A program made the translations under genes and the position numbers. A stretch of 64,000 nt of DNA, taken from assembly GCA_947561715.1 (NCBI GenBank), contig OX387197.1, positions 1,803,001 through 1,867,000 of the forward strand, in the 5' to 3' direction. Positions 779 to 52,535 of the stretch are shown piece after piece. The stretch is from Ascidia mentula. Its lineage: Eukaryota > Chordata > Ascidiacea > Phlebobranchia > Ascidiidae. Position 1 is the first letter of the stretch. The number at the start of each line of letters is the position of its first letter. The notes under the pieces were generated by a model. It saw only the letters and a list, made by a program, of their open reading frames with translations. It was not told the DNA's origin and searched no databases.

Positions 779-3704
779 TCATTCAGTGGATGAACTAGAG
801 TCTGATGAAGAATCAGAAGATGAATCTTCACTGGATGTTGGTTTTCTCTTCTTCTTCAGCATCGGGGAGTAGCTTAAGGAACGTGAGAGTTCACGTTTTC
901 GCTTTGTTTTCTCATTGTGAGACGATCTTCTTCTGTCGTCACTGATCCGACGAGGAGGAGAAACAGAAGGAGATCGGATCTGTCTTCTGCGAGGAGGACT
1001 TGGAGATGAGGATTTATTTTTGATTTTCTGGACCTTTGATAGAACAGCATATCGACGTGGAGGTGTTGAATCGGAATCAGAACTCGAGCTCTCCTCCTGC
1101 ATCTTGGGATGTTGGGGAGCTACCACTGGAATCTCAGAGTCACTGGATTCTGACGAGGATGAAGATGTTTCATGCTTCTTATTTTTTTCTGCTCTCCTTA
1201 CAGAAGAATTTGTTTTCCTTTGATGAGAGCGCTTTTCTGGAGGCAAATCATCTCTTGATGGGTGACTTTGGTGGCGGCGACCTCTTTGTTCAGACATTTT
1301 CTGAGATGCTTTTTCATAGTGCTGAGAACGTCTTGGCGATCGGGATAGTTGTCGCTTGGGTGGGGATATATTACGAGATCTGACCTGTCTGGAGTGTTGC
1401 TGAATATTTTTCCCTCTTGATGGAGCAGATGGTTCTGAAGAGTCGCTATCAGATGAAGAAGAAGAAGGCCTGACAATCTTTGATGACCTTTTTACTTCTG
1501 CTCTGCTTCGTACTTGCTTGGGGGAAGGTTCATCATCTGATGAGCTGTCTGATGATGTCACATTTTGATATTTCACATGTTTTTTCACAAGTTTCTCAAC
1601 CATAGGTTTTCTTTTCTTCACTCTTTGATTTTCATCATCAGAGGAGGAGGAAGAGCTAGAAGTTGAAGAATCTTGTCGTTTTCTTTCCACTCGAGATTGT
1701 TGGCGTGGAACTGCTTGAGATTTCGCTTTCAACTTCTTGCGTTCAGATTCTTGTTCAGCCAAATACCTGCGTTTTGCTTTACTGTACTTTGCAGCATCAG
1801 AATCGCTTTCCGATTCATTTCTATTTCTTCTCTGCTTCTGTGGTGGAGATCGGGAGAGCTTCCTTGTTCTGGATGATGGAATTTTTCTTTTATCTGCGAC
1901 TCTTTTACGCTCCACAACCTTTTCATCAGAACTACTTTCTTCAGATGAAGATTCTGAAGAAGTTGAATCTCTTGCAGTAATTTTTGAATGCTTCTTCTTG
2001 ACATCTCTGCGAGTCTCGTCTCTTAAAGGTATCCTTCTTGTTACCTCTGGTGAAGACGGTCTTTTTTTCCTGGAATCTCTTGTTGAATTTTGATGATTTC
2101 TGCCTTGAGTATCGTCTCTTTTATTTCTTTTATCCATACTTCGGTCGAATGATGGAGACCTTTGTCTTGATGTCTCAGATTGATGCTGTTTTTGGGAATA
2201 TCTGTCCTTATGTCTAGGAGGCGGTAACTCCGGTGATGAAGATTGCGTCCTTGTTCTTTTATCGTTTTGTTTCTCAGATTTCTTGTTATCTTTACTTGGT
2301 CTTGAACGATTTTGCTTGCTCTCAACCTGCCTTTCATGGCTGCGTGACCTCCTACGACGTACAGGAGATGTTGATGGACTTCTTCTGTTTTTGTCCTTAC
2401 GAATTCTTTCCTCCCTCACTGGTGATCGCTGACGATTTTCCCTGACTGCACGCCGGGGGGAGGGGGTTCTTCTCTGCATGTTACTGTCTCTATGGGAAGA
2501 TTTTGATTGTCTTTTCCTCTGTGGTGAAACTGACCGCTGTTTGGGAGCTTCTTTATGTTGCTTTTGTTTCTTTGGCCTTTTGGTTTCTTCATTTTCCAGA
2601 TCAGATGAACTGCTCGAGGGTTTTGCTTTTCTTTGCTTTTTCTTCTTTTTTCGATTCTTTTTATCAGCATCAGAACTTTCTGATGAACTTTCAGAGTCAG
2701 ATGAGCTCGACGACGATTGCTTTTTTCGACGTTTCTTGCGTTTCTTTTTCTCTTTTTTCTTCTCAGAAACTTCATGTGGTGGGGAAGCACTCGGTGAGCG
2801 AACAATCTTATACTGTTTCTGTTCATCTTCTGCCACCTTTGTGTTTCCCATGAACGAACTACCTTTAACATAATCATCTCGGATTCCAAACGCTTTGCGT
2901 ATTTTCTCGTTCTCTTTTTCTTTCATTTCAGCAACCTGATGTGTTTCAGAGACGATGGGTCGTCCGCTTGCATCTTCCTTTCCTGGGAGACTTTCTTGGT
3001 TTTCAAGGAGCATAAGTCGATAGGATTGGACTTTCTCTTGTATTTCCTGTTCGTCATAACCTTGCTCTTCCATCAAATCCTGCACAACATTCTTATATTT
3101 AAACTTTTTGCTCTGAACTGGAATAATAAGAATAATTTCATGAATAACAAGCGTTCAGCTATGTACGGAAACTCAGCTTATATTGATATTAAAAGTTATG
3201 ATAATACAATGCTGATATTTAATTGTAATATTCAAATAAATAAACAAATGCAGGGAAAACTCACTTGAAATTCCATGCATTTTACTTCTGCTCTTCGTTT
3301 TAAGTCGTGGAGAATTAAATCTGCATTGGGTTTTTTCTCCAATCTATGCGATAACAAAAAAATTACCAAATACTCATGAACACTGAATATACGTAAATTA
3401 TAATTTTTACATATAGGCTACAACAAAACAAAATTAATTTTGACCCCATTTCATTTATAGACAAAACAGATTTAAACCAGAGCACATCTTAACAAGAAAT
3501 TGCACGGGGAGCCCACAAACACCACCATCAATGAAAAAAAGTGTAATGATAACGAAAATACCTAGAGTCAAGTTTGATAAGTTCCTCCTCTGTTTTGAAA
3601 CCTCCTTTTTCTTTAAACTTCCTAACTGCTGAAAGATTGCGTTGAACATAACCATTCGTGCCACTTCCACGGACAGTATTCAGTCCAATACCATTGTACG
3701 ACAT
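779..3704 (-). CDS. SRRM2: SRRM2/Cwc21-like serine/arginine-repetitive splicing factor
   Basis: This is a nuclear splicing coactivator of the SRm300/Cwc21 family, which binds the activated spliceosome. Three exons are supported: 3562-3704, 3265-3343 and 779-3112. All have GT/AG borders and join in phase to give 851 aa. Exon 1 opens MSYNGIGLNTVRGSGTNGYV and continues into RNLSAVRKF, the diagnostic N-terminus of SRRM2 and yeast Cwc21. Exons 2-3 supply the cwf21 domain (about residues 60-113, with DLMEEQGYDEQEIQEKV). The rest is a low-complexity RS domain rich in SSSSSDSES runs, RSPSxSP motifs and Lys/Arg stretches, ending SSSSSTE. It is shorter than vertebrate SRRM2 (over 2,500 aa) but typical of invertebrate orthologues. 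The start ATG at 3702-3704 is fixed by homology. Many short frames across this region are by-products of the biased composition. Confidence 0.92.
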
Positions 3705-6566: not shown

Positions 6567-9155
6567 TTAAATAGATGCTGGTGTTTCTAGAGCATGGGCC
6601 AGATTTCCAGCACTTACAAGAAGTTCATTGATGTAATCGGAGGCAGTGGAAAATACAGGCTCAACTTTAGGAGTGTTATTATGAGTTTGCGGGCTGAAAT
6701 CAGTCGCCGAATCACTCACGCTGTCTTCCTCCTGCATCAAAACCTTAAGTTGATTTAACTGCTCCCGAATGTTTTGGTTGTGATCTTCGAGAACCTGCAC
6801 TTGGCCATCAATTCTTTCTGATTGCTGATGCAGAATTTGTGCTTCCGACAGCTGGTGTGCATTAGGTGATATGCCGGTATTCATAGCAAACCTTGTTAAT
6901 GGGGGCGTTACTTCAATGGGTTGGTCATCCTGGTCAGTCACTTTCACCTTTGGAGGCATGTCTGGTGCAGGGGGAGCATGACTACTCGTGGCAACGTAAC
7001 TTCCACTGAAAGGAATTTCATCTTGCTTGTGATGAAATAATGCAGAATGACGATGTGGAAACTCAGCAGTTTTCGCCTCCGATTTGTCAAAACCCATTTT
7101 CTCACAATATTCAAGAATGAGTCTATGCTCGTCGTCCATTCCTTCAATGAGGGAGTTAATTGCAACGCTATCGTCAAGATGAGCAAGTTGATTGGCATAT
7201 TGTTGAATACGAACATGTGTTTCTGTTGTAGCACCACTCGACACTGGAAGCATAGCTTGCATCACTTGGTCTTCTGTGTCCCCGTTCTGGCATGTGGTCT
7301 CTACTTGTTTAGGCTTACTTTCTGAGAGGTTCAATGTCTTCTTGTCCTGTGGTGTCATTTGTACAGGAAGATATCCTATGTTTTTCTTACTGCTACGCCC
7401 TTTTAATTTGTTCTTAAGAACCTTGGTAAAATCTCGTATATTCTCAATGGAAGTTGTCGGCAAGCAATACTCTGCCATTGGATAGCAGAAAATATTGCCA
7501 TTGGCAATTCTGCCAGAAAAAAAGCAGCTTTGACAAATGTCATAGTTAAAGTGGCGAAGGCTTCTATATCTGAATCCAACTATTGGGCATTCACGGCAAA
7601 CAGAACACCTTGCAGGGTGGCTCACATTTTCAGCTGCAGCAAGTCTGTGGAGAACTGGAAGCCATACAAGGGACTGCGGTTCCAGTTTCAACCAGTCTAT
7701 AAATTGTGCAGCATCAATTTCTGGTCTGGTCCCAACCAACTGGAAGCAGCTTCTTATGCTCGGGCCTGCATTGCAACCACCAAAAGCACTGGACTCTCCT
7801 AGTTGCCAAGGAATAAACATTAAATTTTCAATGATACTTTCCAAACCACTATTATCCAAAAAACCAGTGGCCGCAGCCACCTGCTGGAAAATATATCGAT
7901 ATTTCTCCTCAAGGCCAGCTTTGCAAAGCGAAACAACACCACATTTGAAAGAAAGCGATGAAATTTGGCCCCTTCTTTTTGTGTCGTAAACATTTAATAT
8001 CCAGTTGAGACACATGTCAACACACAGCGGTACATTTACCAAAGTTTTGTGTTCATTTTCCAACGAGTCATACAAAGTTGTCAGGCAACCTATCATCTCA
8101 AGAATCCCCATGCTTTGTTTTGTGGCAGGAGTTTTGAATGTGGCATTAATTTTGTGTTCAGCAAATGCATTGTTTGCTGTCTGAAGTGGCAGCAAATCAA
8201 GACACAGGGCTTTTTGCAATCGCCGGAGCTTCATTGCTGTTCTGTAAGCTGAAAATCTCACATCATTCAAATCAGACATAGAGTCCATCAATTCTGCCAT
8301 TTTTGGGTGATCCCAACATGTAGTTTGCTTTTGGTGGTTGATGTAATAAGGAACTTTGTTTTCAGCAACTGCCCTTTCCCAAGGGCCCTCAACAGAAGAT
8401 GTCAAAAACAGTTGGGAGTTTGGGCCAAAATCTCTCACTGCATCTACAAGTTGTTTAACTCGCTCACCGCAATAAACCTGCAGCAACTTCCATCTCATAT
8501 TTATTTCATCAACTTTGTTCATTGCATCCTGGGATAATCCCATTTGGGTTTCTGTGACAGCTTTAAAGCACTCATCAAGATTGGAAATATTATCTGTCAT
8601 TGGCTTTATATGAGTAGATTGAAACATTTTCATTTGTACTACGTGCTCCTGCAACGATTCAATCGGAAGCTCTCCCACATTTCTCCATGTGTCTCTTTTA
8701 ATTTCCAAGGTCTTCAACATCTCTCTGCAACTTCCAATCTGTGTCCATAACTTCTTCAAAAGTGGTAGCAGAGTGTTTATCTGATTGTGAAGCTGGTCGC
8801 TCTTGCGTAGCACCATGCTCCATTCCTTTTCTAGTTCAACAACAAGATTCCTCATCAGTTTCAGGATGTTGTTTCTTTCGTATTCTCCACCCGAGAGTCT
8901 GTTCTGTTCCTGAGATTCCCGAGTAGTTGAGATATGGTTGGCAAGAGTTGACTTCGCAGTTTCTAAACCACTTCTGATGACTTCCTGTTTAGCTTCAAGC
9001 TCCATAACCAACATTTCATGTTGACTCTTTTGCTGCTGTAAGGTATTGATATCAGCGCTGCACTGCATCACCATATTACTGACATGTTCATTTTTTATTC
9101 GCAGCCAGTCCAGCAAACCTTCCAAGATACTGCACAAATTTTTCCATTCATTCAT
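6567..9155 (-). CDS. Dystrophin/utrophin/DRP2-family protein, apparently single-exon
   Basis: Dystrophin-family proteins link cortical actin or the cytoskeleton to the dystroglycan complex at the membrane. One uninterrupted 862-codon frame holds, in order: a spectrin-like coiled region (about 1-240); a WW domain (about 251-285, [10 protein letters not shown]...YYINHQ...TCWDHP); the two EF-hand-like regions (287-505); a ZZ zinc finger (512-560, [29 protein letters not shown]); the conserved PVQM segment near 597; and a C-terminal coiled coil. The WW domain separates it from dystrobrevin. Size and layout resemble DRP2 or short dystrophin isoforms such as Dp116. The ATG at 9153-9155 follows an in-frame TAA upstream. 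Lack of introns is odd, because dystrophin genes are normally highly split. In the ZZ domain the usual KGHKMHYPM segment reads NGNIFCYPM, so both histidines there are replaced. A retrocopy is likely; the long intact frame argues it is expressed. Confidence 0.9.
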
Positions 9156-9837
9156 TCTTATTAAATATTTCGACCAAAAATTTAGGTTTTAAAGTGCTAT
9201 GTGCAAAGCAGATACAGGCACATTAAGGAAAACATTAAAATACAACTAGTTTAGGTTAATTCACAACACCATTCGGTCATCCACAGTATTCTACTTCAAC
9301 AGAGCTTGTCAACAACAAAGCGTAGACATATGACGATTGATTTACAACCATTTTACAATTTCACTAATAACGCAAACGGTCTAGTTAAACCAAAATGATT
9401 ACAAATCATTTAGATTCAGCGAACATTCAATTGGCGGATAACGAAGACAAGCAAATTTCGGCAGCTGTTTGTTCAACCCACACGACCCAAATAACAACAT
9501 TCCTTCATAATGGTGCGAAATTACAACAATCCTCCCTCGGGCTTTTTCTTCGACGGGGCGGTTTACAACCAATCAATATATTTTAATTCACCACCTCTTG
9601 AATTACCGGTACAAGATAACATATTGCTTCCACATAGACGGGCCAACAAACTTAAATTAATAACCGAAGGTAAAAATTGATGACTCTTTCGCAAAAAAAC
9701 CTTTGAAAAAAAAACAAATTCAACTCTCTAGCGCCGCAGTGTTTGGCGCTCCGGGATTCTCACGTTATGAAAACGTTTGTTACCCAAAGGTTGGAGGTTT
9801 ATGTATTGAAGGGAAAGATTAATCGAAAGCAATCGTC
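9156..9837. promoter_or_regulatory. Shared divergent promoter interval, dystrophin-like / SNRPG
   Basis: This 682 bp interval lies between two divergently oriented start codons. It contains no convincing frame beyond a 63-codon chance ORF. Local GC rises around 9730-9760. No repeat was recognised. Confidence 0.45.
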
Positions 9838-19200: not shown

Positions 19201-20572
19201 TAAGAATATTTTTGTTTCGCGAGTCGAAAAGTTTTTCCACCCCTGAGCCACACATTCTAAATGATTGACAAAAAGTAACATTTGGAGAACGTTTAATATG
19301 TTTAACTACACGGTACTATCACTAGCTTGTGCTTTTACTTCGCGAAATGAAAGTTGGAGAATATTTGCAACCTTGTGAATATTCATAGCGGGGTGTGTTT
19401 GCATTGCTCGGTTTCGCTTGAGAAATCATGCAAAGACACGACCTTGCATATTTTGTTCTGGATTCTTCTCTGTGACCTTGAAGTTCTTCCCAGAGTTAAA
19501 ATGAAGGAGAAAACGTTTTACTACGAAACGAGATGCCGGAGGCGGAAACTTACCTCGAACTTTTTTTGCGATTGCAAAAGTTAATTATCAGTTTTATTGC
19601 TCAAGATTTTTCAATGAGTCAAGTAAAATGCTTACCGACAATGCTCCTTTGTTTACAATAGCAACTAAATTACAAGCTCGAAATTTCTTATCTAATACAA
19701 CTTGCAAATGTATTGTCAACAGTGGCAATGTAAAGCTCCATCACTCCCTAATTACCGCATTACAAATGCATTCGCAGCCCCAAAATTCCTTGCAATGCCA
19801 CAGCTGCGCTGCCTGCAAACCCATAAATATTTAACTCCCTTCTGCATTCTTTCAGTTCTTAACACAAGTGCTGTGCTGTAACATATGTGCTTGTATACCG
19901 ACAGGCATGAATGACAAAAGGTTAAAGAGCGAACCGGCGATGGAAATCCACGCACGAACGCTTCGTCAACTTTACACAGACTCATTAAGGTGAGACCTCG
20001 TATCAAAGCACTTTGCCTTCTATAAATGTTGCAGACGTTTTAAAGCTTTATTCCGGCAGCTGTGAATGGCGTATCCACATATTGTGAAAGTTAAGTGGCA
20101 TGTAAAAATTTACACGGTAATTCGGGTGGATGTTTAAAGAAACTTTTGTTACCTGTTTTATGTTTCAAAAATGCACAGCTTTTATCCAACCTACTTTGCT
20201 CATCCCAATAACTTTGGCTCAATTTTGTGGCAAAGCAATTAAACAATGAATCGTTCTGTATACTTCAATTTACCCTTTTTTTTAACAACCAGCAAACCAA
20301 ATGAGCTGAACACGCAAGCCTTGAACACGCATGTGTTCCCTGTGCCAAACATGCTTGGCGCCACAAAAAGTATTTCATTAAACTCAGTTCTATGTCAAAA
20401 GCTTTACATTAAATAACGATCTGTGCATTCAAAACAACAACAACACCATTTTGTAGTGTCAGTACCAATAACGTCAGTCAGGTTAGCTTCATATAATGAT
20501 GGAGCTACACCAACCGCGTTATTCAAACTGATGATGGCATAAGTTCTTGGCATAAGCGAAACGTTCTTAAAA

Positions 20573-21882: not shown

Positions 21883-24800
21883 TCACGTTTGTGACGTAAG
21901 CGATGTCAACGAACCGTAAACGTCGAGAGGGGTTTCTTGAATTGCGCTTGGGCGCCGCGTGGTGTTGTTTTTGGCTCGCAAATCAGCGTCACTAGAGGTG
22001 CCAGAGCCGCTCTCACTAGGTAGAAGTGTCCGTTTGCGACCTTTAGCTGTCAACCTTGCGTTGGTTCTCAGGTTGGGATTGCTTGAAAACGCTTCCTTTT
22101 TCGTTTTCATTTCCTTGGCATCTTTGGACGGTTTCTTACTCGCTCCGCTCTGCTCCCTAGTGGACGGCTTTATTGACTTGGCGCTTACCACACGTTGGCG
22201 TAGTTGTATCACTTCTCTGGCTTTGTTGTCACGTTCGGTTTCTGTGTCTGCAAGTCGTTGTTGTAAACAGGCAACTTCTCGTTGCTGAAACATACAGGTT
22301 GAAAGTTGATTAATTTCCAGTAATTTTGTTGTTACACAAATACAGTAATAAGACAGTTACGGATGGCCTGCTGATTTGGGTGTTAACGTGACTTACAAAA
22401 TTACCAGCCCTGTCTGTATTATGCAATGGCCGTATATATGTGATTTGTCAACCCTGTTTCTTTGCGACAAGAAAATATTTCCCGCAATGTCGTCGAATTG
22501 AAACTCACCCAAACTGCGTCAAGGGATCGTTTCAATGCGTTGAGATTATCCTGATACGCCAGGTTAAGCTTCTCCGCTATATCGGGTCTCATTATGGAGC
22601 CAATCATGTCATTAGGAGGTCGCTCGTTTCTTGACATGTCTGGATCCGATCTTCGGGCAGGAGAGGGCGGTAGAGCGCTGTCCGGGCTCTCGTCTCGTCT
22701 GTCAAGATAATAATATTTACTTGTTCGTCACGTGAAGCCAAAATTAATGACGGGAATTTACCCTAGTCGTATTAACTTCACATAGAAGCAACCACGCGTA
22801 GACGTTTCCAACTTAGGTTTCAAGCAAAAGTTTAAAAGATCGGAAGGTGTATTTACATGCTTATGTTTAAATTGCGATATTGCCTTGGGAGGAATCAGAC
22901 AGGTATATACAATATTCACGCCCTATAATTAGTTCCCGAATTATCAGTTTTTACGTTTTATTAATACCCAAGAACGAATTAAAAATGTTGGTAAGCGTTT
23001 TCCAATGACTTTGCGTCTTGGCTTGAAAGGTGTTCAAAACAGCAAGCTTTAAATCAACGTCAGCTACTTCAGCATTAGGAGTTGAAATATCGGTTTGTCT
23101 GTTAGGCTTCATCAATACGTCAGTATAAAATCAACTTTTTTGTCTTTAAATTGTGTTGAGCTTTTTGTAACCAATTATTTTGTGTCTTGTCATGACTGAT
23201 ATCAGCAAATTGATCAAAAAAAGCCCATAATTGCGGCCCAAATATAAAATACAGCCAAACGCAAAACGATTTAGAATTCGGCGAAATGAGAAGAATTTAT
23301 GGGTTAGCAAAAATAATATGTATTTACCCGACATCTGCATTGTACGTTCCACTCCTCATGCTGACGTTTACATTTGATACAGACTGGATATTACTTGAGG
23401 TTGCAGTCTGTTTAGTTTGAGTCGAACCACCACTGTAGGCGTTTGCAGCGGAACGATTCCTTCTCGCCTGTTGCATGATCAGGTACTGAACAAAACGCAG
23501 CAGTTAGGCAAGAAAACCGCCAACCATTTCTAATTGTCTCCGCATATACGTTGGTACATTGATGCGGTATAAGTTCTATCGCAAGTAAATATCTACTCGT
23601 AATACCACAATACCAGTTTAAGGCACTCGTAATACCAGTTTAAGGCATACCCATGCGATTACCAAAGGTCCGCCAAGCACGTCACCGTAAATTTGCTTAA
23701 ACCAGCAAGAAAATCTTTTATTTGGAGCAAAAACAAATCTGCGAACCCAACTTCGAAAACCATACTTTCTTTACAAATGTAACTGTTAGCCCGTGTCTAT
23801 CGAAGCGTGACCAAAACTCACCTGTACTCGCGGATATTTGCCCAACGACATGTTCACGTCCTCTGACGTCAGCACGAATAACTCGCTGTAGCCACAGGAT
23901 ATGACGTCACACGTTCTTCGGTGGTCTTTACGTAAGTTAAGAATGTTCATCTCGCCGAATACGTCACCGTCGTTTAGCATCGTCATACTCCCGGTGGAGT
24001 CCCTAAAGCGACCGCAAGATTATGTTTTGTAAATTTGATGAATCAAAATTGTCTTCGGTATTTTTAAAGTTGCAAACAATAGTAGCAATTTTCTCAAGCA
24101 ATGACTTATTTTTTTAGCTTCGTACTTAAACTATGTAGCTACACACTGGTTTTTTATTTACTTGAACCTGCTGAACATCACAAAATGTAAACGTGTTTGC
24201 AACTAGTATTTTCTTCATGATTTGAGTTTTATAAAAATTTAATGTATATTTATTTTGCACACAAAGTTACAGCGCTCATGACAATAAACATGATACATAA
24301 AATCGTGTTGCGGACTGAAGGTTGCACCTTTAACTCACCATTGTACTCAACTACCAACGACTTACTTGATAAGTTGTAGAATTCCCTCTCCAACAATGAA
24401 CATCTCGTTTCCCGCATCACCGCTTGTGTAAACACACTGACCGGGTAAATACGATCTTCTCTTCATCTTTGTCACCAGCTCTCGTAACAAGTTCGAGTCG
24501 CAATTCGCGAGCTCGGGTAACTGCAGGAGAAAATGTAATGTTGCGGGTCGCAGTCGACAAAATTTTTTTTTAAATAAGCAAATTGGAGCCAATGATATGA
24601 ATTGTGTAAGCTGCAGACAGATGGCCACTGTTTCGACCTGAAAGGTCTCATCAGTGCAGCTGGTGTGACTATCAGACGAATTTGCCGACCAAACGGCCAA
24701 GCAAAGACTTCCACTTTGTGGTGACTAGTTTGACACAAGCTTGTTCAGTTTTGTTTCATGCACAAATATCAGTACCTGTCTAAGTGCTTTGAAGTTGGTG

Positions 24801-27800
24801 TGCCAATTCATCTCGTGCTTTACCGTGACCGGTAGATGGCGCAACATATGCTTTTCGTCCAGGTGATCAAAGTCGGTGCTGAATTGAAAATAAGCATTCG
24901 TAAGTTTTCGAATGTTGTGTCACAAATTACTTTAATGGAATTAAAACGATTTCTATTAGTAGTTATTAGTATCGAAATATCAGAAGCAACAGACTTGGCA
25001 CCGATAATAAGCTTGAATAAATCTTATCCCAGCGTTGAAACGACAATATGTTCACTAAACACATTTTAGACGTTTTATGCTGTTTAAGCACGGTGTTTCC
25101 CCCAAACTACTTAAACTGTCGTACTTGAGCCACGTGTGATGATAAAATCTCTCCACTCGGTGGCGCAAGTCTTTCGGAAGATGTCGCTGTTTCATGTATT
25201 TGAGAGTTGACGTCATAGAGCGCTCGAAGTCATGCTTCTTTGATTGGTGCGACATTATTAGTGACGTCACATAGCCTGCGTAAAATAAATTATTTTTCCA
25301 TGAAAACAATATTGTTTGTGGTGAAGATTTACAAAACCGTGAGTCATGTTTTTATTCTCATCTTTCCACGATATAATAAGGAAAAACAAGGTCTTACCAA
25401 TGATAAAAGCTGTCATAGCGAACCCGATGACGTCAACGTAGATTGTGTAAGCAAACCTGGAAGGGAAAGCAATGATATTGGTCTGTTGTTTTCCTGAATA
25501 TTATCATTTGTCCGGAAATAATCGAACCACTGCGTTTGGCATCTATAAATGTCCCTCGTATTCCAAATAGGCTGCGTTATTTGGCACGTTGCTTGGGCCT
25601 GCACTGGACAGATGCTTTACTGTTATAAATGGTCTTGTTTGGTTGCACTCTGCATGGCTTGACCTCTGTCAACTTACTGATGACCTTTGACGCCATCTTG
25701 TTGACTCAACAAACGCGTGGCGTGGAAAAAGAGTTTTGGGTTGGTTTGCATGGCGACATTTTCAGTTCAAATTAAGGACACTCCTTTTATTGGCGCCTTT
25801 AGCTTTTCCTGATGCATTTCCGCAACAAATTTCCGACGATTTATGTCACGATTTAGTTTTTAAATTATTCTTTCTGTAACGCTCGACCCAACAATAAAAA
25901 TCATATTACTTCCAAAACACTGCATTTTCTCTTGCAATTTTTTTAAAAACACATTTTAGTACAGATGGGAATGTAGAGTCTCAGTAATAACCACAATAGT
26001 GTGGTATAACGTCGTACAGTGTCGTTATTGGGATTAAATAAAATGTACATAGACCTACTGTCCTTCCCCAAATTCGCCGGTAAATACATATAATACATGG
26101 GTTTACATCGTTGCTAAAATAAAAACACTTTGCTTTCAACACTTACTGCCAGTCATTCTCGGGCAGTGGACTGTCCTTGTTCCAGAATAGAGATTGCAGT
26201 GACCAGTACAGAGAGTAGGTGTATTGTCGTGTCACGTTCGTGTAGTCGGGGAACAGGGCGGGGTCCGGATAAGCCCAATGACTCAACGATATACCTGGAA
26301 TTTCACGTATATTAGCAATTGAGTCTGGATATTCATGTTTGCAAGCAAACAAGCACTTTTGTTTGGGACAATTTTTTTAATCCTGCTTAAGTGTTTCTGT
26401 GTAAAGCTGAAATAACGATGATACAGACAGTTATATAAATCTTGATTCAAGCATAGATCCAGTATTGTTTATTATTATTTTCGACTGCTTGGGTAATGTA
26501 TTATTAGTCTCGGTTTGCTGCTTTGCCTGCTGTTCACTTACTAACTACAGTAACGCAGAGAACAATATATAGGTGCGTTACCCTTGATTGGGTATTTGAA
26601 CATAGGTTTGAACGTACAAATACTCACCATAGCCATTGACGATCGACAGTGAGTAATAAATACACGCGTTGTAGTGCGCCACCAAGAGGGTAATGTGCAG
26701 TAGGTTTAAAGTGCGCCACACAGTGGTCCACTGTGTCCATAGCTCCACCATGCGATAAAGTGTGTACTGCAAAACAATGGTTTTGTAAAGTGCGAATCGT
26801 TGGTCATGTTGTAAACGTCGCCTGTAGCGTTTGAGCGTGCGTCTTGTTCGAGGTAAAACGGTACATAACATCGGGTAATGCACAATTTAATCTAGTATAT
26901 CAGCAACACACTGCCCATCACATCAAGCGTAAACATTATATTTACCACGGCATGACAGCTGGTAAGCACAAGCTTCTCAACTATATATTATTTACCTTAT
27001 ATCTAAATCCATATAACGTGTTGGTGTCTTTTATGTTTTAGGACATAACATCTGATAGGTGCCAACTTTTTAAACCGAATAATATTTGCATTATAATTAC
27101 CTATATCGCGATACTCACCGCTCTGTAAATGCGGATAATCCTGTTCATTCGAAGATAGGGGTTGATTGTAACAACGAAAAATATGTCGGTTGGAAATATT
27201 GAAAGCACATCTAACAAGGTTGCCCACTTCTTACGCTGGTGGTGAATGATTTCCTCCGTGTCTGCAAAATGTCAACATTCGAAAGGTCACGTTGCAGCTT
27301 GCAGCAACTTGTACTCCGACTTGGCATTTGGCCACTAGCCATTTTGCATTTAAGACACCAAAAGTTGGTAGTTTCATTTTTATGCCACTTGATATGTATT
27401 CTGATACAAAGTTGTTGTGCTTTTTTAAATCTTACATACTGTGTTATTTCAAACTCTCAATTGTTGGGAAAAATTAACATGTTATAAAAGGCGACTGCGA
27501 CTATTCCTACACATTATATACATGTGGCACTTAACAATCAATCTTCTACTTGTGGTTAAAAGAAGGTTTGTTGGGACCTATATTGAGGTGTTTTACAAAC
27601 CTTGGATATAAACGCCTCCACTCATGAAGCGCGTCCTGAATCTGACGATAATATCGACGATATAAACGATATCGCACACTACGTCAATTCCCAACCATAC
27701 TCTACTCCATGGTTCTTGAATATCTGGAAAATAAGCAACAAAATCTGGTGTAGAACCACACTCACCACATTCGAGATATAAAAGTTAGATGTAATTTTAT

Positions 27801-30800
27801 GTGATAAGCAATGTGGAGCCAATAATATGAATTGTGTATAAGCTGCAGTAATTTCATGTGTTTGAATCTGTTTGGAGTTTCCTACAAAAAAAAATCATGC
27901 ACCAAACCTTGTGTAAACTGGGTTTCTTTGATATAAACGTATAAAATGTGTACAACTATGGGATTTTGGACGATTCAAAAATATGTCAAGCAATTATTAA
28001 TTTGTGTCACGTGACCCAACGTGGAAAGGAGGCCGGGGAAAAAAACTTTTGGTTGAAATCTTTCAAAATTTACAGAAACCAGTAATTTTGGTAACATAAA
28101 AAATTCGGGTATTTTCACTTGGAATTAAGGAGTTAAGTGCAAAGTTTCCCTTATCGGGGAAGGTCCAATCACAATTAGGCGAATCGAACTGACAGTTGAT
28201 TGCCCTTGAAATAACCTTGATACCGTCATCCCTTCCGCTCAAGTCTCTTTGCCGAAACCACATCATCCTATTTGTTACTGATAATATTTTTGCGACGCGC
28301 TGTGGTGGACTTGGTGGCTACTGTTGCTTTTAAAGGCGATTCGTGTCATGTTCAAAAGGACTTGAAAATCAATTGTAGAAGACAAAGAAAAATACCGTGA
28401 AGTTTTTTTTGCAAAATTTTGTGCTTCGATCATTTTTGTGGATCCGGAGAAAGAAACCAATGCAATTTTTATATTTAATTGTGTGAAGTGTCGCACTCTT
28501 GTTACGCATAAAGTAGCATTGTGCTGGTGTACAAAATCAAGTAACCATTGCCAATAGCCAGGCCGTGTCCATCGAACACTCATGCGTAAATACTTAAAAT
28601 CAGCTACAGTGCAGGTATCTTGTCATTGCATGGCATCGTTTTATTCACATGAAGGCCATGTTTGGTATTTGTGTGTCGTGCGCTGCCAGTTGAAGCCTCT
28701 TGGCTCCAAGTCCACGATAAGCCATTAAAACCCTACGATTAAACTGTCGTCACCAAACACACGGGGGGCCTGGTACAAAATTAGCACGAGGAACAAGGTG
28801 TTTGACCTAATCACTTCAAGCAATACGATCGTATGGAGAGGAAACGGCACGGAGTTACGTTTCCTCCCTGGATTCCCGCCATTTTGGTGACAATCACTCG
28901 CGTGTCGTTTGACAGCTTTCAAGTCCGCTGTTCCAGTTTTGCTCCAAAACATCTGACTTGAGGTTTTTCGGTCAACGCAAATATAGCAAGGATATTGACC
29001 TGTTCCTCTATACGGACTTTCCTATTCCTGGATTTAATGGGTTTGTTCAAAGAATTAACTTTACCAATACATATGATGCGGATGAATATTAAATAAAACT
29101 CGCATATGATTTGTTCTCGTTTGCAATCAAGGTTTATTTAAACATTCGTTAGAATCTCCGGTGATTTTAAGCGGTTGACCCCTTTGTATGTGTAGAAAGG
29201 TTCAAGTCTTGACACGCAACAAAACATCTACAGATTGCACCTATGTTCGTATGTTTTCAAATGACATTATCGCTTTCCCGGTGATCAAAACGCGCGAAGC
29301 TAATTGTTTCGTTACAATTGTCCTGTCGAGGCATAGAATTGTGTTACCGCATTCCATTAATTGTATTCATTTCACGTCAGACTCCCGTGCAGTAATATGA
29401 CAAAACCGTGTCACGCTGTACTCCTCAGAATGATCAACGCAATGGTGATTTATTGTTTTAATGGAAGTAATCTCGTTCCGCCCATCAGTAACGACTGCAA
29501 TATGTGTGACGTCTGTTATATCAGTATCACTGCAGTGATGTCCGTGGTGACATGTTGAAGGCATACGACTTGATCAATTCAACGTTTAAAAGATTGCTTT
29601 CACTGTGCCCGAAAATTTTTCAAACGTATGCGGAAATGACAAAGATTATTGAATAAGGTGAACAAGAATAAACCATGTTATGTCCTTGCCATCACCCAAA
29701 TATAACGGCACCAAAATCTCCCAGCACAGCATTAAATTTCACCACAACTAAAACTAATCCCGAAACAAAGTTTTTTTTAATATATTTGTGTTCACCCACC
29801 TGCAAAGCTCCCGCGTAAGGGAATAACCCACACGTTGTATAACACCGTTGCTGTGACAAACATCAACCAGAAGTAAATGAACGTTGAATCGGGTCGGCGC
29901 GTCTTCCCCCAGAGGGAGCTACAGAGCAGCTTTGTGTTGGGCAGTTTGGATGTGAATTCAGTTTTCGGGTCTTCTTTGATGACGCTGCTTTCATCTTCTG
30001 TGTGTAGTTTGACAAAAAAATGAATTAAATATATTTTATAACATACAAAAACTGATGATGCCTATATAGGCGAAATTGATATTTGGATCGGTGATTCCCA
30101 ACCTTTCTGTGGTTGCGTACCACATGGAGATTAAACAATATCGACGCGTACCACCTAGTTGAGTGTTACAAAGTAACCTAGGGGATAAAGTATCGAACAT
30201 TTTGAGATCACTAACGATTTTTTAAATTCGAACTATATCCGTAAATTACGGGAAGGTGCTCGCGTACCACCTGGATTGCCGTCGCGTACCACTATTGGTA
30301 CGCGTACCACCGGTTGGGAAACAATGATTTTGATAAACTATCTGACTTTAATCTTAAACATTTTGTTTAAATAAATAAGTTGCTATCTTAAAAAATGTCT
30401 GTCGCTGGTATCAAGACAGTGTCAAATTGGGGGCTGGATTCGGCTACAAATGAGGAACCAGCAGTCTTATAACAAACAGGAAATTTGTGGTTGGACGCGG
30501 AAATACATTCTTCATGAGGCAATTTCACCACAAATTTTCTGCTTTACCGAATCGCGACTATAGCTCGGGTACTTCCAGTAGCTTTTCTATAACATCCTAT
30601 AGCTCCTTAGTCTTACAAGTTCTTTGTTTGATGCATATATTTCGCCTACTTATAGACATCAGTACCGCGTATTCAAATCGGGTAAGTCCTATAATTTTGG
30701 AGTGCTGTAGAACAGGGATTCCCAATCTGCCCAAACCCAGCGAGGTTTACAAGGAGTTCATAAATTTGTATTTCCGTAGTATTTTACAAGTGAGTTATAT

Positions 30801-31889: not shown

Positions 31890-34800
31890 TTTTGTTCCAC
31901 AACCGACCACTTAATGTATTCTAAAGCATCCCAGCAGATTTGTCAGTGACAAATTTTCGGTTTTTTTAATCCTAAAAATATCGTGAAAGGTTTGCGTGAG
32001 TTATTTTTGTTGAAACATTTCGGATCCAAATTAACTTTAATTAAAGACCGACTCCATTAAAGTTTATTCAAAGGCTCAATAGTTCAAACAATACCACTTT
32101 AGTGCGCTGCAGACAGATGGCCACTGTTTCTACCTATAGGGTCTCATCAGTGCAGCTTGGTGTGACTATGGGCGATCTTGCCGGCCGTCCAAGCTCACAA
32201 AATTCATATTATTGACTCCATGCTTATTTCTATGACACAGTTTCGACAACACGGTTGCATCAAACCCCCGACATCTGCTCGTGAAACTCACCGAAAAGTT
32301 GTTTTCAGTCGCAAACCAACACACGGGATTGGATCTGCCAAATCAAGACCAACTAATTACCTTTCCGGACAAATTGCACAAGTGACGTATAAATTAGTTC
32401 CGCTCATCGCGATTCGAGCGTTGTCCCGGCAACGCAGTGCGTTCGACCCGAATTTTGTCGTCAACAATTTTATTGACCTAAATTCGAGACAATCAAAGTG
32501 GAATTGTGGCCGAAAAGTTCAGGTCGGCCACGTGACAAAACGCCCAACACCTTCAGTCCCTTGACTTCTGTAAAAAACCGAGCAGGAATTTGTAAATAAA
32601 TGTCTGCCTCTCTTCCTGGGACGCAACTGGTTGCATAAAAATGTTCATGAATGCAATCAGATGACCTCACAAATACCTGGTTATTACCTCATAATCCACA
32701 TTCCGACAACAACAGAACACTTCGTAAATGTCCTCCCTCGATAATAATACAACAAACATTTATCTGGTACATCTGATAACTTGCAAAGCCAATTTCTGCC
32801 TACAATGCATTGTTTGTTTGTTTGTTATCTGTTCTACTTCATTGTTTTCTATTCTAAATCTCACAACCAAACAAGCTTAAGCGCGAAGCGTCATTCCACT
32901 TCGAACAATCAAGTGAAAATGAAACTATCACCTTAACATGCGCAATTGTAACCCTGGCGATGCGTCCTATTCACATGGACTGGCGCTGTGTGCTTATAAA
33001 CTAGCCGCGCGCGCCGCACGGATCGTTGTGATGTGTGTACGGATGACTGCAACACGAGACGAACAAAAAAGCTTTCCAGAAATTTCAACATGTGATCGAA
33101 ATGGTTGATTGCTTAGGTTTTGCCCGAAGTTTTTTTAAACACTGGATTGTTTGTTTCGATAAACATCTCAATCATAGGAGAATCTTAGAGGTTTCAACGA
33201 CTTTTGTGCTTGCGCAGTTTCGTTATGACGTATGAAACCATTTGTGCTTGAACAGTGACGTAACAATGTGCATTGGCGGAAATATTGGCATATTTGAATC
33301 GATATCAAAGAAATGATCTTTTGGAAAGTTTGTCTGTTCAGGTGTTATTACTCCAATTAGGCAATCGACGAAGTCGGCATTCGGCAACAAATGAATTTTA
33401 TTGAAAACACAAAATTTTATGTCTCAAGGTTTTCGTTAAACTGTGTAATCTGTTAGAATTATGGCATCTAAAGTTTTACATGATTTTTATTAAGTAATCA
33501 TTCTTACGTCCCTACAACTCCAAAGTTGTTGTAAGAAATATCATTGGACAAAACACATGCGGATACATGGCCTCTTTTTACTGTTTCCATTTAAAGAAAA
33601 ATCCAAATTTAGATCCGACCATGCTGTTCATTTGTTCGGTGTGTTTTAAAATCAGCCACAAGGATCTTCCCTGGTGCCCACATTCTCCACATACAGCGGA
33701 AACAGTTGAGGAGAAATGAAGAATAATGGATTCTACGTCCCCCGCCACCCTATATCCCCAACATGTTGCTATATTTGTAACTGCGGTGCTTCTCTTCCAA
33801 CAACAACCTACAATTGATCGTAACTCACCGCAAACAATGCTCGTATATGTTGTGTGCATTTAAATCCAGGAGCGGTCGTGGAAAATGCAGGATTCGATTC
33901 GAAAAGAATTTATTTTTTATGATGCCTCCCGAGAAAATGACATTCCGGGGAAATACGACCTAAATCGGGTTATCTGAAAAAGAACCGAAGATGTCGGAAC
34001 AGTGTGTACAACTGTCTGCAGCTCTCAATGATTGTGATGGTTTTTCTGCACATAAATCGAAGATGTTTTCTTTAAATTATTCTTTGTTTTGACACGAGGT
34101 CTTTTTATATTGTGAGTTAAAATGTGAAGTTTCCACCTGTGTCACAAGTAGCGTTGGACAAAGGTTGATATCAGGAAGAAAACCTTCAAATATACCAAGG
34201 ACCGAATGTGTTTAAACCTCACTCCGTATACCCTGGGTTGTGTGTACAACCGTGAATCCGATATATAACGGGCAACATAAGTTCTCCAAAACACGTGCAA
34301 GCGAAAGTTTCAGAATAGTGGGCAAGTTTAAAACACTTAAACCCGTGCGTTTTTACTGGAGCAGTTGTCAGACGGCAGCATGTCAAAACGTACTCTGTGT
34401 CTCAGTTCACACAAAACATTTCGAATTGTCACAATGTCGAGAATCTTTTGACGGCGTTGATCTTACAGAAGATCCATCAGCAGATGTCCCTTCCACAGTA
34501 AAATGGATGTAAGCGTGCAGCTGTAATCACACCAACCCACAAACACCATCCACCCGTTGATGTCACCTGACACCACGTCACAATCGAACCGCTCGCGCGC
34601 TAAACAAACGAACACGACCCCTTCATTGTTTCAACCGCGATTTTTATTCGGAGCACCAAAACACTCCGCTCATCCATTGTCCCTTATCCAAACTTACAAC
34701 ACGGTCGCATTGTGCGTCACAATGATCGGCGCGCTTCGTAATAATTGCTATTGTTTCATGGTGGAGGATCGCTTCTTGTAACCCTCCCCAGGCAGAAGAC

Positions 34801-48375: not shown

Positions 48376-51300
48376 ATGGCTGGAGAGGATTGTACAAAGT
48401 CTGCCGAAAAATTGAAACTGGAGCACGGTGGCTATGTTTTGGAATTACTTGACAAGTAAGTTAACTTGAAGTACAACCCCTATAGTTACAGACACGTTAA
48501 GTTACGCATCAACAAAACACAGTAAACAGTAATAATCCAAATGCGAAAACCTTGTCTAAATGTTTGTTTAAATACAACGGATTGAAAAGAAATCAATCAT
48601 TTTCGTTGTCAGAATTGAAAAAAAAATGCTTGTATTGTAGTCGATGTTGGAGTTATTTTGATCACACTTTGTTCAGGGACCGAAAAAACGAACATAGATT
48701 TTGTGACGTCATTCTACGAACAGAAGAAAGTGATTTCTATGCCCACAAGTGTGTTGTTGGGTTGATGTCCGATTTCTTCGGCTCAATGCTTAAATCTGAA
48801 GTAAAACCACTTTTATAAGCTTGACTCATAGGAAAGATATCCTATTGGAACTCACAAAGTTGTTCCTTTATGACGTCACAGATGCTAGAGAGGTACGCGA
48901 ACGTGGTTCCGCTCCAGCACACATCTCCTCTTCGACTAACAATCATCCTAGACTTTATATACACGGGCGTGGTAAAACTTAGTGACGTCAGTGTTTATGA
49001 CGTGTTACAAGATGCAGACTACATGCAATTACACGGTGAGGGTCAAGAGTTTTGGGGAAACTCAAAACAATTCTTGACACAATCTTGTACTTTCTCCATT
49101 AAAACTAAATTTTACTCTTGGTGTTATAGACTTGTGGTGGTTTACCTTTCTTGCTAAGTTTTTAATGCCGTTACTTGTGTTAATATGTTATTTTTATTAA
49201 ACTTTTCAAATATAAATGTACGTTTATCGGATAACAATTTTCAAATTTGCTTGTAAAGATCATGTCTTTTAGGATTCCAAAATTTGCATATTTTTTAATA
49301 GAAATCGAAACAACATTTCATTACAAAAATACGTTTTCTGTACTTGCAGCTCTGATCGTTCTGTGCGAAATATTTTTGGTGGGAAACACATCACGTGACA
49401 ATTGCCTGAAGAACCGGTTATTCTCACAACGATTCCGGCTTAAAAAGGCATTAGAAAAATCGAACAACGTGATCAAAAGCAACGTGATGTACGTGTTACG
49501 TCACGACGAATTTCTTCAATTGGAATGTGATGACGTCAAGGATATTGTTAAAACTTGTGAGGTGTGATTACATTATTATGTGTTTATTATGATTTACATT
49601 ATCAAAAAAAAAATCGGGATTATTTCTATAGTAGCCTAGGAGAAAAATTAAAACTGAAGAAAGTTCATCTAATGCAGTGTTTCTCAAACTTTTTCCAATC
49701 ACGTACCGCTCATTTGTTTTTTGATACACTGCGTACCACCGTATTACTATACCATAACTGTTATGACATAACACCAATGAATAACAATTTAGCCAATATC
49801 ACCAGTTGCTTGGATTTCTTTATTGTGCATTTGTGACGCAGTAGTATCAACGTGAAACTGTTGCACAGTTGAATACACGATGTCAGAATTACTTCAACAG
49901 TGCAACAATTTCACGTTGATACTATTGCGTCACAAGTACACAATAAAGAAAACCGACATCATGTATTTGCAGCGGTTTTGGCTTCTGCAAAGTGCGGCAA
50001 ATTGTATAGAGTAGACTAAATCGCGTACCACTTGAAAAGCTCTCGCGTACCACTAGTGGTACGCGTACCACAGTTTGAGAACCACTGATCTAATGTATTT
50101 TTGTTGCTCTGTTGACTTTAAGATCGAATCCAAATACATGTTTAAAACAGATACAAAGAAATAAATGTTACCTTTGTTTTCTACACGAAATGTATATGGT
50201 ATCAAATCACGATTATCCATCACACGATTTTAGTATATTGAACAGTATTCCACAGAAAAGTAATCCCATTGGTTTTGTAGATCCCGCAGGACGCCTTGTA
50301 TAATGCGATAACAAGATGGGTGAAATATGATGAAGATAAAAGAAAAAAGTATTTTTCCCAACTTTTTCCTGAGATGAAATTGGGGCTTCTCCCCAAATCC
50401 TTCATTAAGAATGTCGTCGCCAAAGAGGTAAAAGTTGACATGGAAAATAAACTGTTTGAGAAACATAGTTTGTTGGTTCTATAAATGGGTTTATTATTAT
50501 TATTATTATTTTTTTAACTGCAATAATTTGGAAAAAGAAAATAAGAGAAATAATTTATCAAATTTACTTTTTACATTGGCAATAACTGTGAGAAACGGGA
50601 TATCTTGAATCCAAAACCTTATATTTTCAGAACCTTGTTTCTTCTTCTTCGGATTGCTTGCAGACTTTGCTTCAAGTTTTGCTTGAAGAGAATAAAAAAC
50701 ATCACAATCCAGGTGTTTGAAGTGAAGAAAGTAAACAATAGACTGATAAAAGTGGGAAAAACTACCAGACCTGTGGCAAATTAAATCTTATGATTTCTAT
50801 CACTAAAATAGAGTGAGATGATTTTTAATAAATTTTCTCACAATTTCTCAGGTTCATTTGTTATGATTGGAGGAGTTGAAAGGGGAAGAGAATGCGTTCA
50901 GTTCGACCACAAGTTTCAACCCAGTAATCTTCCGGTTTGTTCGACAACTTTTATGAAAACTTTCCCACTCGATTTCACATTTTATCGTGCGTTCAGAAAT
51001 TAAATGATGTCAGAATCGGGTGCGTTGCCTTCATTGACTACCCGCACTTGTACGTCGCCGGCGGCGGATCAACCTCCAGTTTTAAGACAGATCCTTCGAA
51101 AAGCGCCGAAATGTACGATTTCGGGGCGCCCACTGGCGGATGGAAATTTATGGCGAACATGAATGAAGAAAGGATGTACGCAGCCGGCTGTATTATACAT
51201 GGTATACGATCTTCTGTTGGTCATGTTTTTTGCTTGTCATGACCCAAACTTTGAGTGCAGGTTACATTTACGTCACCGGCGGGGGCAATAAATCAGGTTA

Positions 51301-52535
51301 CTTGAGGTCGTGCGAACGTTATGACGTCATAATGGAAAAGTGGAACATATTAGCTGATATGAAGGAAAACAGGGCTTTTCATGGAACAGCTAATTACAAA
51401 GGTCGTGTACTTCATTTGAAAATGTTCTTCGGAATTACTGCATTTAGTTTCACCCCAAGTTTACTTTTACCAAGTTTCAATCTTGCGCGATTTCCACGTG
51501 TTAAGTCCAATTGGGCATTCCTATTACTGGCTGTCACACCACACGTACTGAAGTGCTCCTACTTAAGGTTACAGATCATTGCTGAGGAGTTTAATGTTTT
51601 CACTAAACGTTATATAAATGAAACCACGTGTTGTGGTGCAGACACGATCTACAGCATCGGTGGCTGCAACGAACTCAACCACCTCTTATCCGTCGAAAAG
51701 TATCATTACGTCACCGACACATGGAGTGACGTCAGTCCGATGTTTGTGGGAAGGAGTGGGTTGGTGGCGATTGTTTTCGAGAATATGATATACGCAATAG
51801 GTAAGCGCGCATATCCTACAACCAACATTGTAAGTCTGCATTAGCGTTGCCAAAGAGAAACGAGCATACAAATTTCCGAAAGTTGTAAAATTGCAAATTT
51901 TTTTCCAAATGTCCAATTCGTGACTTAGTTTTTGGTTAATTACCCATTCAGTACACTTAAGTCGGTTTCTACTTTGCTTACAACCTATGACATAACTGTG
52001 CGACATTGGTCTCCTATGGCAAACTTCACGGTAAATAGGAAAACCTATTTGTTCTTATAATCTTATTGTAAGAATAATAAGAAATTCCTTCCATTTACAT
52101 TTTCCCAAAACAATAAATTTAGGGGGATTTTCGGGGAAGATTCTTCCGACCGTGGAGAGGTACAACCCCGAAACCGATACCTGGACACAGATTGCGTCAC
52201 TGAACGCACCAAGAAACAGACCGACAGCGTGTGTGCTCGGGGGGAAAATATACGTCATAGGGGGGTGAGAAATTATAATGTTGAAATCTTAGAATGAGTA
52301 AGTGTTGTAAAATTTTACCTAGTTACTGGACATTGAACGTGGCGGCCTAAGTAAAAACCTTATCATCACTAAACTCAGCACTTATCTTACTTTAATCTTA
52401 ACCACACACAGACAAGATGGTTCAAGGAACAACTTGACGTCCATAGAAGTTTATTCACATCAAGACGACACGTGGACAGTCTGCTCCGAGTCTATTGACC
52501 ATCCGCGCTTTAGTTCGGCTATGATTTCTATGTAA
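48376..52535 (+). CDS. BTB-BACK-Kelch (KLHL-type) protein
   Basis: KLHL proteins are substrate adaptors for cullin-3 ubiquitin ligases. Twelve exons join in phase to 547 aa: 48376-48455, 48677-48800, 48882-49035, 49350-49561, 50290-50427, 50631-50712, 50852-50934, 50997-51201, 51261-51401, 51642-51800, 52123-52264, 52412-52535. The BTB domain covers about 27-119 (RFCDVILRTEESDFYAHKCV, IILDFIYTGVVKLSD). The BACK domain covers about 120-262 (DALYNAITRWVKYDEDKRKK, LLPKSFIKNVV). Six Kelch blades follow, with the usual GG pairs and W residues (IYVTGGG, IYSIGG, IYAIGG, IYVIGG). The BTB contains no obvious break and the family length is normal. The intron between exons 7 and 8 is only 62 nt with a GTTTGT donor; that border is the least certain. 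I cannot assign a specific KLHL orthologue. Confidence 0.92.
49675..50087. mobile_element. hAT MITE with 8-bp target site duplication
   Basis: The 413 bp element starts CAGTGTTTCTCAAACTTT. It ends with the inverse of CAGTGGTTCTCAAACTGTGG. It is flanked by exact 8-bp duplications ATCTAATG at 49667-49674 and 50088-50095, which is diagnostic of hAT insertion. The interior contains a long palindrome with arms of about 60 nt (49815-49872 and 49892-49952). There is no transposase. It lies in the intron between Kelch-gene exons 4 and 5. Confidence 0.9.

What the first reader, a model, noticed from the sequence alone, without database searches (positions are those of the whole stretch)
24609..24661. 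Complete hammerhead ribozyme inside a CNG channel intron, in sense orientation
The minus strand folds into a three-stem type I hammerhead with every core base canonical (CUGAUGA, GAAA, UC triplet) and perfect 7, 4 and 3 bp stems. It sits in a 255-nt intron and is transcribed with the channel pre-mRNA. If active, it would cut the intron during transcription and could influence splicing of the exons that encode the C-linker and nucleotide-binding domain. Intronic hammerheads of this kind are known in a few vertebrate genes. I do not know of one described at a CNG locus.
Basis: partly seen in the sequence, partly recalled or inferred. Interest (0 to 1): 0.85.

Follow-up and report, generated by a model that had tools for sequence, protein, structure and literature searches.

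The report
Sea-squirt retrozyme copy in intron
The self-cutting RNA motif in this sea-squirt ion-channel intron is real, but it is one of many copies of a small selfish element (a retrozyme), and the scars those copies leave match the scars of Penelope-like retrotransposons, which points to the machinery that moves it.

Summary
A letter-perfect type I hammerhead lies at 24609-24661 (-), in sense, in a 255-nt intron next to a cNMP-binding exon; the predicted cut is 24616/24615. It is not special to this gene. It lies in a 154-bp fragment (24574-24727) of a dispersed, apparently non-coding ~285-bp unit. The genome (195.8 Mb; ascidian by mitochondrial code) holds 1376 matches to the family's ribozyme pattern, 0 in the reversed control. 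Some copies form 285-bp tandem arrays. This is a non-LTR retrozyme, a known kind.

The insertion scars are the new part. In 25 of 29 two-armed inserts, head-to-head arms end at two preferred places (medians 131 and 161 of the unit); 28 of 44 inserts are flanked by shared words of 9 bp or more, mode 12, AT-rich. Two RT+GIY-YIG Penelope-like families (PLEs) in this genome show the same anatomy with 41-nt tails. Print calls that tail unique to PLEs. So PLE machinery probably moves this retrozyme, a point left open in print. Of 74 outer arms, 70 run through the ribozyme cut junction, so templates were joined there (circle or uncut multimer). Control of channel splicing is untested and unsupported.

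The parts
24609..24661 (-). Type I hammerhead ribozyme; predicted cut between 24616 and 24615
   Evidence: sequence; structural scan and Markov control
24574..24727 (-). Retrozyme fragment, unit positions 1-157 of the 285-bp unit, 93.6% identical to the unit in L037; one arm only, no target duplication found
24521..24775 (-). Host intron, GT...AG, 255 nt
24776..24878 (-). Exon upstream of the intron (C-linker by eye)
24366..24520 (-). Exon downstream, in the cNMP-binding domain
27799..27848 (-). Second remnant in the same gene: unit 112-162 only, beginning at the ribozyme cut site, flanked by CACATRAAATTAC (12 of 13 alike)
32102..32186 (-). Degenerate copy of a related subfamily; the base pair of stem II next to GAAA is lost; a piece of unit 127-157 lies on the other strand at 32200-32227

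Best explanation
The hammerhead is the ribozyme of a non-autonomous, non-coding, non-LTR retrozyme that has spread through an ascidian genome; the intron copy is a truncated passenger. Life cycle: tandem units are transcribed and the hammerheads cut the RNA to unit length (inferred); the pieces are rejoined as circles, or some RNA stays multimeric (inferred). The RT+GIY-YIG protein of a resident Penelope-like element cuts AT-rich DNA on both strands and starts copying the RNA at two internal sites about 30 nt apart, one from each DNA end (inferred from the scars). Each copy runs 5'-ward, sometimes more than once round the unit. The product is two head-to-head arms, one longer by a ~30-nt tail, between target duplications of about 12 bp (the scars are shown). 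In the channel gene the copy could at most cut the intron when it outruns splicing; I expect little effect on the mRNA (inferred).
For: Family and tandem units. Fit to animal non-LTR retrozymes (150-450-bp tandem monomers with type I hammerheads, GC under 50%, duplications above 4 bp). Two end clusters: 33 of 74 outer ends at 119-145 and 38 of 74 at 154-170; one of each in 25 of 29 two-armed inserts. Shared flanking words of 9 bp or more in 28 of 44 against 0.9% with swapped flanks, 80% A+T. Close neighbours of listed ribozymes: -+ 10, ++ 5, +- 0 (100 of 1376 listed). Same-genome PLEs: RVT_1+GIY-YIG frames of 801 and 892 aa, head-to-head order, tails of exactly 41 nt in two families, 12-bp duplications, GIY-YIG neighbours -+ 19, ++ 5, -- 1, +- 0 of 134 matches. 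Print: two-site internal start and tail unique to PLEs, AT-rich cutting of both strands; inverted arms, 31-bp tail, 9-bp duplication in rotifer Penelope. 70 of 74 outer arms cross the cut junction and 11 exceed 285 nt.
Against: Four of 29 two-armed inserts break the two-site rule (L014, L024, L033, L081) and three of 74 ends lie elsewhere. Sixteen of 44 inserts show no shared word of 9 bp or more. The intron copy has one arm and no duplication. I found no sequence shared by the retrozyme and the PLE loci held beyond hammerheads and nested copies, so no partner PLE is named. The rotifer paper reports no cross-mobilisation between its PLE families, though it also reports an unrelated gene moved in trans. 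The in vitro PLE paper finds ribozyme cleavage not needed for insertion. Tails are 41 nt in the two PLEs but about 29 nt here. RNA circles and activity are not shown; arm identity within inserts is a weak signal.
Confidence: 0.72

Rival explanations
1. Domesticated regulatory ribozyme: the hammerhead is kept in the channel intron because cutting the intron tunes splicing of the exons for the C-linker and nucleotide-binding domain.
For: Intact core and stems, sense orientation, short intron.
Against: Dispersed family with 1376 pattern matches; 34 of 37 full-length aligned segments also keep an intact core, so intactness is usual; no excess conservation of the ribozyme in this copy, though with little power; predicted monomer fold weak.
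Confidence: 0.05
2. The retrozyme is moved by a LINE with ordinary twin priming, which also gives inverted arms and target duplications.
For: Twin priming by LINEs gives head-to-head inverted inserts with duplications (recalled); the 2020 paper leaves LINEs possible.
Against: The outer end of the inverted arm should then be arbitrary, yet it lies at 119-145 in 18 of 21 best-match inserts and one end of each kind is found in 7 of 8 listed-position inserts. The paired sites match the PLE tail. I did not examine LINE inserts of this genome.
Confidence: 0.12
3. The two arms and arrays arose after insertion by DNA recombination or by satellite-type expansion, not during reverse transcription.
For: Tandem arrays exist, and short 145-bp and 168-bp tandem repeats lie near some copies.
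Against: Duplications flank the whole two-armed structure (for example L037, L035, L093), polarity is never +- among listed neighbours, and end sites recur across unrelated loci.
Confidence: 0.06
4. Chance resemblance to a hammerhead.
For: None found.
Against: 0 in 10 Mb of Markov sequence; 1376 pattern matches against 0 in the reversed control.
Confidence: 0.01

Closest known systems
Animal non-LTR retrozymes (Cervera and de la Pena 2020, PMC7229834; text parts 1-4 of 6 read)
   Same: Type I hammerhead in a short tandem unit of low GC, high copy number, duplications above 4 bp, PLEs in the same genome.
   Different: New sequence family in an ascidian (the terms tunicate, ascidian and Ciona do not occur in that main text); head-to-head two-site scar, not described in the parts read. 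Circles not tested here.
Penelope-like elements (PMC11167929 parts 1-2 of 4; PMC3846280 passages)
   Same: Insert anatomy: head-to-head arms, one arm with a tail, target duplications of about 8-13 bp, AT-rich sites, hammerhead-like core near the ends.
   Different: The retrozyme has no RT or endonuclease; its tail is about 29 nt, not 31-41.
Minimal hammerheads of PLEs and the dimer-acting hammerheads of axolotl
   Same: Short stem III with a palindromic loop; a dimer is predicted to be the stable hammerhead form.
   Different: Here stem III has 3-4 bp and a 7-nt loop, so monomer action is not excluded; two other subfamilies have the hammerhead as minimum-energy monomer.
Conserved intronic hammerheads of amniotes (de la Pena and Garcia-Robles 2010; recalled, paper not held)
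   Same: Hammerhead in a sense intron.
   Different: Those are few and conserved; here one of many dispersed repeats, conservation at the site untested.

Membership tests
Hammerhead ribozyme, type I | CUGANGA, GAAA and UH core with three stems, stem I open | tested here: met
Hammerhead ribozyme, type I | Self-cleavage at the UH site | not testable with these tools
   needs in vitro transcription; the predicted monomer fold is weak
Hammerhead ribozyme, type I | Match to a curated Rfam hammerhead model at gathering score | tested here: not met
   also no hammerhead match in L037, L041, L042, L077, L078, L048 at E up to 0.5
Non-LTR retrozyme | Short tandem units (about 150-450 bp) each with a type I hammerhead | tested here: met
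   for the family: L037 3.5 units of 285 bp, L088/L089 array; the intron copy itself is a single fragment
Non-LTR retrozyme | Non-coding, GC under 50% | tested here: met
   GC 47.4%; longest stop-free frame in two joined units 94 codons
Non-LTR retrozyme | Target duplications longer than 4 bp, when present | tested here: met
   28 of 44 inserts with 9 bp or more; none found at the intron copy
Non-LTR retrozyme | Linear and circular unit-length RNA | not testable with these tools
Insertion by PLE machinery | Head-to-head arms, one with a 30-40-nt tail | tested here: met
   25 of 29 two-armed inserts, difference 17-45 nt, median 29; local PLEs 41 nt
Insertion by PLE machinery | AT-rich target sites with short duplications | tested here: met
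   mode 12 bp, 80% A+T
Insertion by PLE machinery | PLE protein starts copying retrozyme RNA at the two sites | not testable with these tools
   needs purified protein
Domesticated intronic hammerhead | Same site conserved across species | not testable with these tools
Domesticated intronic hammerhead | Ribozyme better kept than its flanks in this copy | tested here: inconclusive
   private differences 0 of 53 against 1 of 101

The most novel reading that the evidence does not exclude
Animal retrozymes are parasites of Penelope-like elements. A ribozyme-made RNA circle (or uncut multimer) is copied by PLE protein from both cut DNA strands at two fixed internal sites just downstream of the ribozyme cut. 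Inserts therefore record the state of the template: long, over-unit arms from joined RNA, and stubs of about 20-50 bp ending at the cut site, like 27799-27848, from RNA that the ribozyme had already cut. That would settle which machinery moves retrozymes and give a genomic read-out of circular templates.
Probability: 0.5. Interest if true: 0.68.

Novelty: new member of a known kind. Interest (0 to 1): 0.52.

Why it matters
The ribozyme in the channel intron is ordinary for this genome, which removes the case for a channel-specific switch. Following it gave something more useful. Which enzyme moves animal retrozymes was left open in 2020 (LINEs or PLEs among others, PLEs a strong candidate), and the PLE two-site start was shown in vitro in 2024. 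The inserts described here join the two and make the question directly testable with an existing assay: add retrozyme RNA to PLE protein and map the starts. Ends lying beyond the ribozyme cut also bear on whether circles are real templates. In the held open-access library I found no paper on this scar in retrozymes (retrozyme + twin priming 0 papers; retrozyme + Penelope + target-primed 1 paper, the 2020 one; further searches, of which most papers were seen as listings only). For hammerheads in tunicates, searches gave one relevant paper, Didemnum with nine type I loci (passages). Subscription papers and supplements were not searched.

Tried and rejected
Rfam as arbiter: rejected, since its models miss the intron copy at gathering score and gave no hammerhead for six related loci at E up to 0.5. 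Reading all 13117 loose core matches as ribozymes: rejected, since the reversed control alone has 1540 and several listed ones lack the other stems on inspection. One template shown by arm identity: tried; opposite arms differ by 3.3%, different inserts by 4.4%, and in several inserts (L090, L032, L021, L083) the two arms differ more than most other inserts do, so this is weak; L035, L088/L089 and L036 have identical arms. A pile-up of insert 5' ends at the cut as proof of cleavage in vivo: tried. Of 164 exact copies of the post-cut 25-mer, 12 lack C at base -9; about six of these break within two bases of the cut, three of them at or near a palindromic junction, so suggestive only. A partner PLE by shared sequence: BLAST of the unit against the PLE loci held matched only hammerheads and nested copies. 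No related ascidian genome was at hand.

How the inserts were chosen: 27 (L010-L037 without L017, which shares flanks with L016) were best matches to the intron copy, so one long-type arm is built in; their informative number is the other arm, short in 18 of 21 two-armed inserts. The other 18 inserts are L041 plus 17 from the 18 regions, picked by eye from the 100 positions listed; they hold five of the seven close -/+ pairs of this subfamily in that list. There 7 of 8 two-armed inserts have one end of each kind; the ten one-armed are 6 short and 4 long. Left out before counting: L009 (the window), L017, L038 (same array as L037), L039 and L040 (copies in two like regions). L088 and L089 are two ends of one array and were left out of the duplication count.

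Full report
WHAT IS THERE. The minus strand at 24661-24609 reads as a complete type I hammerhead with canonical core, stems of 7, 4-5 and 3-4 bp and a GUC triplet. A strict structural scan finds this one motif in the window and none in 10 Mb of Markov sequence. It lies in sense in a 255-nt GT-AG intron, 24521-24775. Four exons around it, joined, give an open frame with a cNMP-binding domain, E 1.1e-13. Rfam reports no hammerhead at gathering score. The genome is ascidian: COX1 has AGA or AGG at 16 places, several of them invariant glycines by recall, as in mitochondrial code 13.

WHAT IT BELONGS TO. A DNA search of the same genome with the intron gave 78 matches including itself (40 of 2097 first-look candidates scored); the top relatives are 91-95% identical over about 150-175 bp. 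The shared stretch is 24574-24727. In relatives it is part of a 285-bp unit that at C69 forms a 3.5-unit array with 99% matches between units; another array lies at C1:3.33 Mb. Unit GC is 47.4% and the longest stop-free frame in two joined units is 94 codons. The family ribozyme pattern occurs 1376 times, its reversed control 0; the pattern does not demand every stem pair, so not all are intact. The loose core pattern occurs 13117 times against 1540, a PLE-type minimal pattern 1480 against 3, and the post-cut word of the intron's subfamily 166 times against 0. Subfamilies differ in loops II and III while core and stems are mostly kept. These features match the non-LTR retrozymes of animals (PMC7229834, text parts 1-4 of 6 read). 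A second remnant, 27799-27848, lies in the same gene, and a degenerate copy at 32102-32186.

HOW INSERTS ARE BUILT. I mapped 45 inserts onto the unit: 29 with two head-to-head arms, 16 with one arm. Of 74 outer 3' ends, 33 lie at unit 119-145 (median 131), 38 at 154-170 (median 161), and three at 96, 228 and 279. Twenty-five of 29 two-armed inserts have one end of each kind, 17-45 nt apart, median 29; the exceptions are L014, L024, L033 and L081. The set is not random (see Tried and rejected): 18 of 21 in the best-match part, 7 of 8 in the part taken from listed positions. Flanks share 9 bp or more in 28 of 44, against 0.9% with swapped right flanks; the mode is 12 bp and the shared words are 80% A+T. 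Among the 100 listed of 1376 ribozymes, neighbours within 1.2 kb are -+ ten times, ++ five times, +- never. An older subfamily copy, L042, has two arms and a 12-bp duplication, ATATTTTTAACT.

WHY THIS POINTS TO PENELOPE-LIKE ELEMENTS. The genome holds PLEs: 134 GIY-YIG matches (150 of 382 candidates scored). Two families have single open frames of 801 and 892 aa with RVT_1 and GIY-YIG, hammerhead-like cores beside them (other stems not examined), tandem and head-to-head order, tails of exactly 41 nt and 12-bp duplications. Neighbouring GIY-YIG matches within 6 kb are -+ 19, ++ 5, -- 1, +- 0; PLE-type ribozymes within 4 kb are -+ 9, ++ 1, +- 0 of 100 listed. In print, a purified PLE protein cuts both strands of AT-rich DNA and starts copying at two adjacent internal RNA sites; [quoted passage not shown]). 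Rotifer Penelope has inverted arms, a 31-bp tail on one of them and a 9-bp duplication (PMC3846280, passages). The retrozyme scar fits that description. That PLE protein moves the retrozyme is inferred from anatomy, not shown. Against it: no partner PLE could be named, the tail lengths differ (29 and 41 nt), and the rotifer paper sees no cross-mobilisation between PLE families, though it reports a host gene moved in trans.

WHAT THE TEMPLATE WAS. The ribozyme cut is at unit 112/113. Ends in the two clusters lie 7-58 nt beyond it, and 70 of 74 outer arms run through it; the four that do not are in L014, L024, L033 and L037. A cut linear monomer (113 round to 112) could give only stubs of about 20-50 bp from these sites. 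Eleven arms exceed 285 nt, up to 989 nt in L037. So templates were joined at the cut site: a circle or an uncut multimer, which this cannot tell apart. In L037 the short arm runs 164 to 138 and stops just before 134, where the other arm begins, as if the two copies met. The remnant at 27799-27848 is such a stub: unit 112-162, beginning at the cut, with a 12-of-13 duplication. Genome-wide support for stubs is thin, and arm identity is weak evidence.

THE RIBOZYME IN THE INTRON. On energies alone the monomer prefers a helix between CACUG of the core region and CAGUG; the hammerhead is about 3% of the ensemble. Two copies together prefer a double hammerhead through the palindromic UGGCCA loop. 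Two other subfamilies have the hammerhead as minimum-energy monomer, although in one the rival helix stays near 0.8. These energies ignore loop-loop contacts, so they lower but do not exclude monomer activity. Compared with 37 full-length aligned segments (some from one array), the copy has one private base, outside the ribozyme; 34 of 37 keep an intact core. Nothing marks this copy as selected. A cut would fall 160 nt after the 5' splice site, with 95 nt of intron left, and could matter only if faster than splicing.

CONCLUSION. Observation confirmed; gene-specific reading not supported. The element is a new ascidian member of the retrozymes. The lasting result is the insert anatomy, which ties retrozymes to PLE machinery and to joined RNA templates and can be tested with a published assay.

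Noticed in passing
window 20528-20561 (+); genome-wide: PLE-type core CTGATGATGGCATAAG..GCGAAACGTT, a likely PLE remnant; the minimal pattern occurs 1480 times in the genome against 3 in the control. That it is a PLE hammerhead is recalled, not tested.
   Followed up: partly
window 30052-30075 (+); L043 865 (-) and 886 (+); L046 164 (+): Another repeated core-like word, CTGATGATGCC....GGCGAAAT, in L043 as a head-to-head pair; its other stems were not found and its nature is unknown.
   Followed up: no
L021, L022, L023, L031, L032, L035, L082, L084, L085, L096 (unit coordinates 61-69): Inner 5' ends of at least ten arms fall at unit 61-69, at the outer edge of stem I (unit 67); three one-armed inserts hold little more than the ribozyme and its tail. 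Unexplained.
   Followed up: no
ribozyme listing; folds: TG after the CAG of stem III, which could pair CACUG of the core region with CAGUG, is kept in the main subfamilies although the U has no partner in stem III; a possible off-state for the ribozyme.
   Followed up: partly
L077 and L059 (C67:6132528-6148499): A head-to-head tandem of a PLE with identical 2870-bp units and 892-aa open frames, apparently very young.
   Followed up: partly
L041 1521-2363; L024 167-656; L033 4-618: Short tandem repeats (about 145 bp and about 168-171 bp) near retrozyme copies.
   Followed up: no
window 6567-9188 (-), 779-3154 (-), 51167-51844 (+): Long open frames that by eye look dystrophin-like with a ZZ zinc finger, SR-rich splicing-factor-like and kelch-like; names recalled, not searched.
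   Followed up: no
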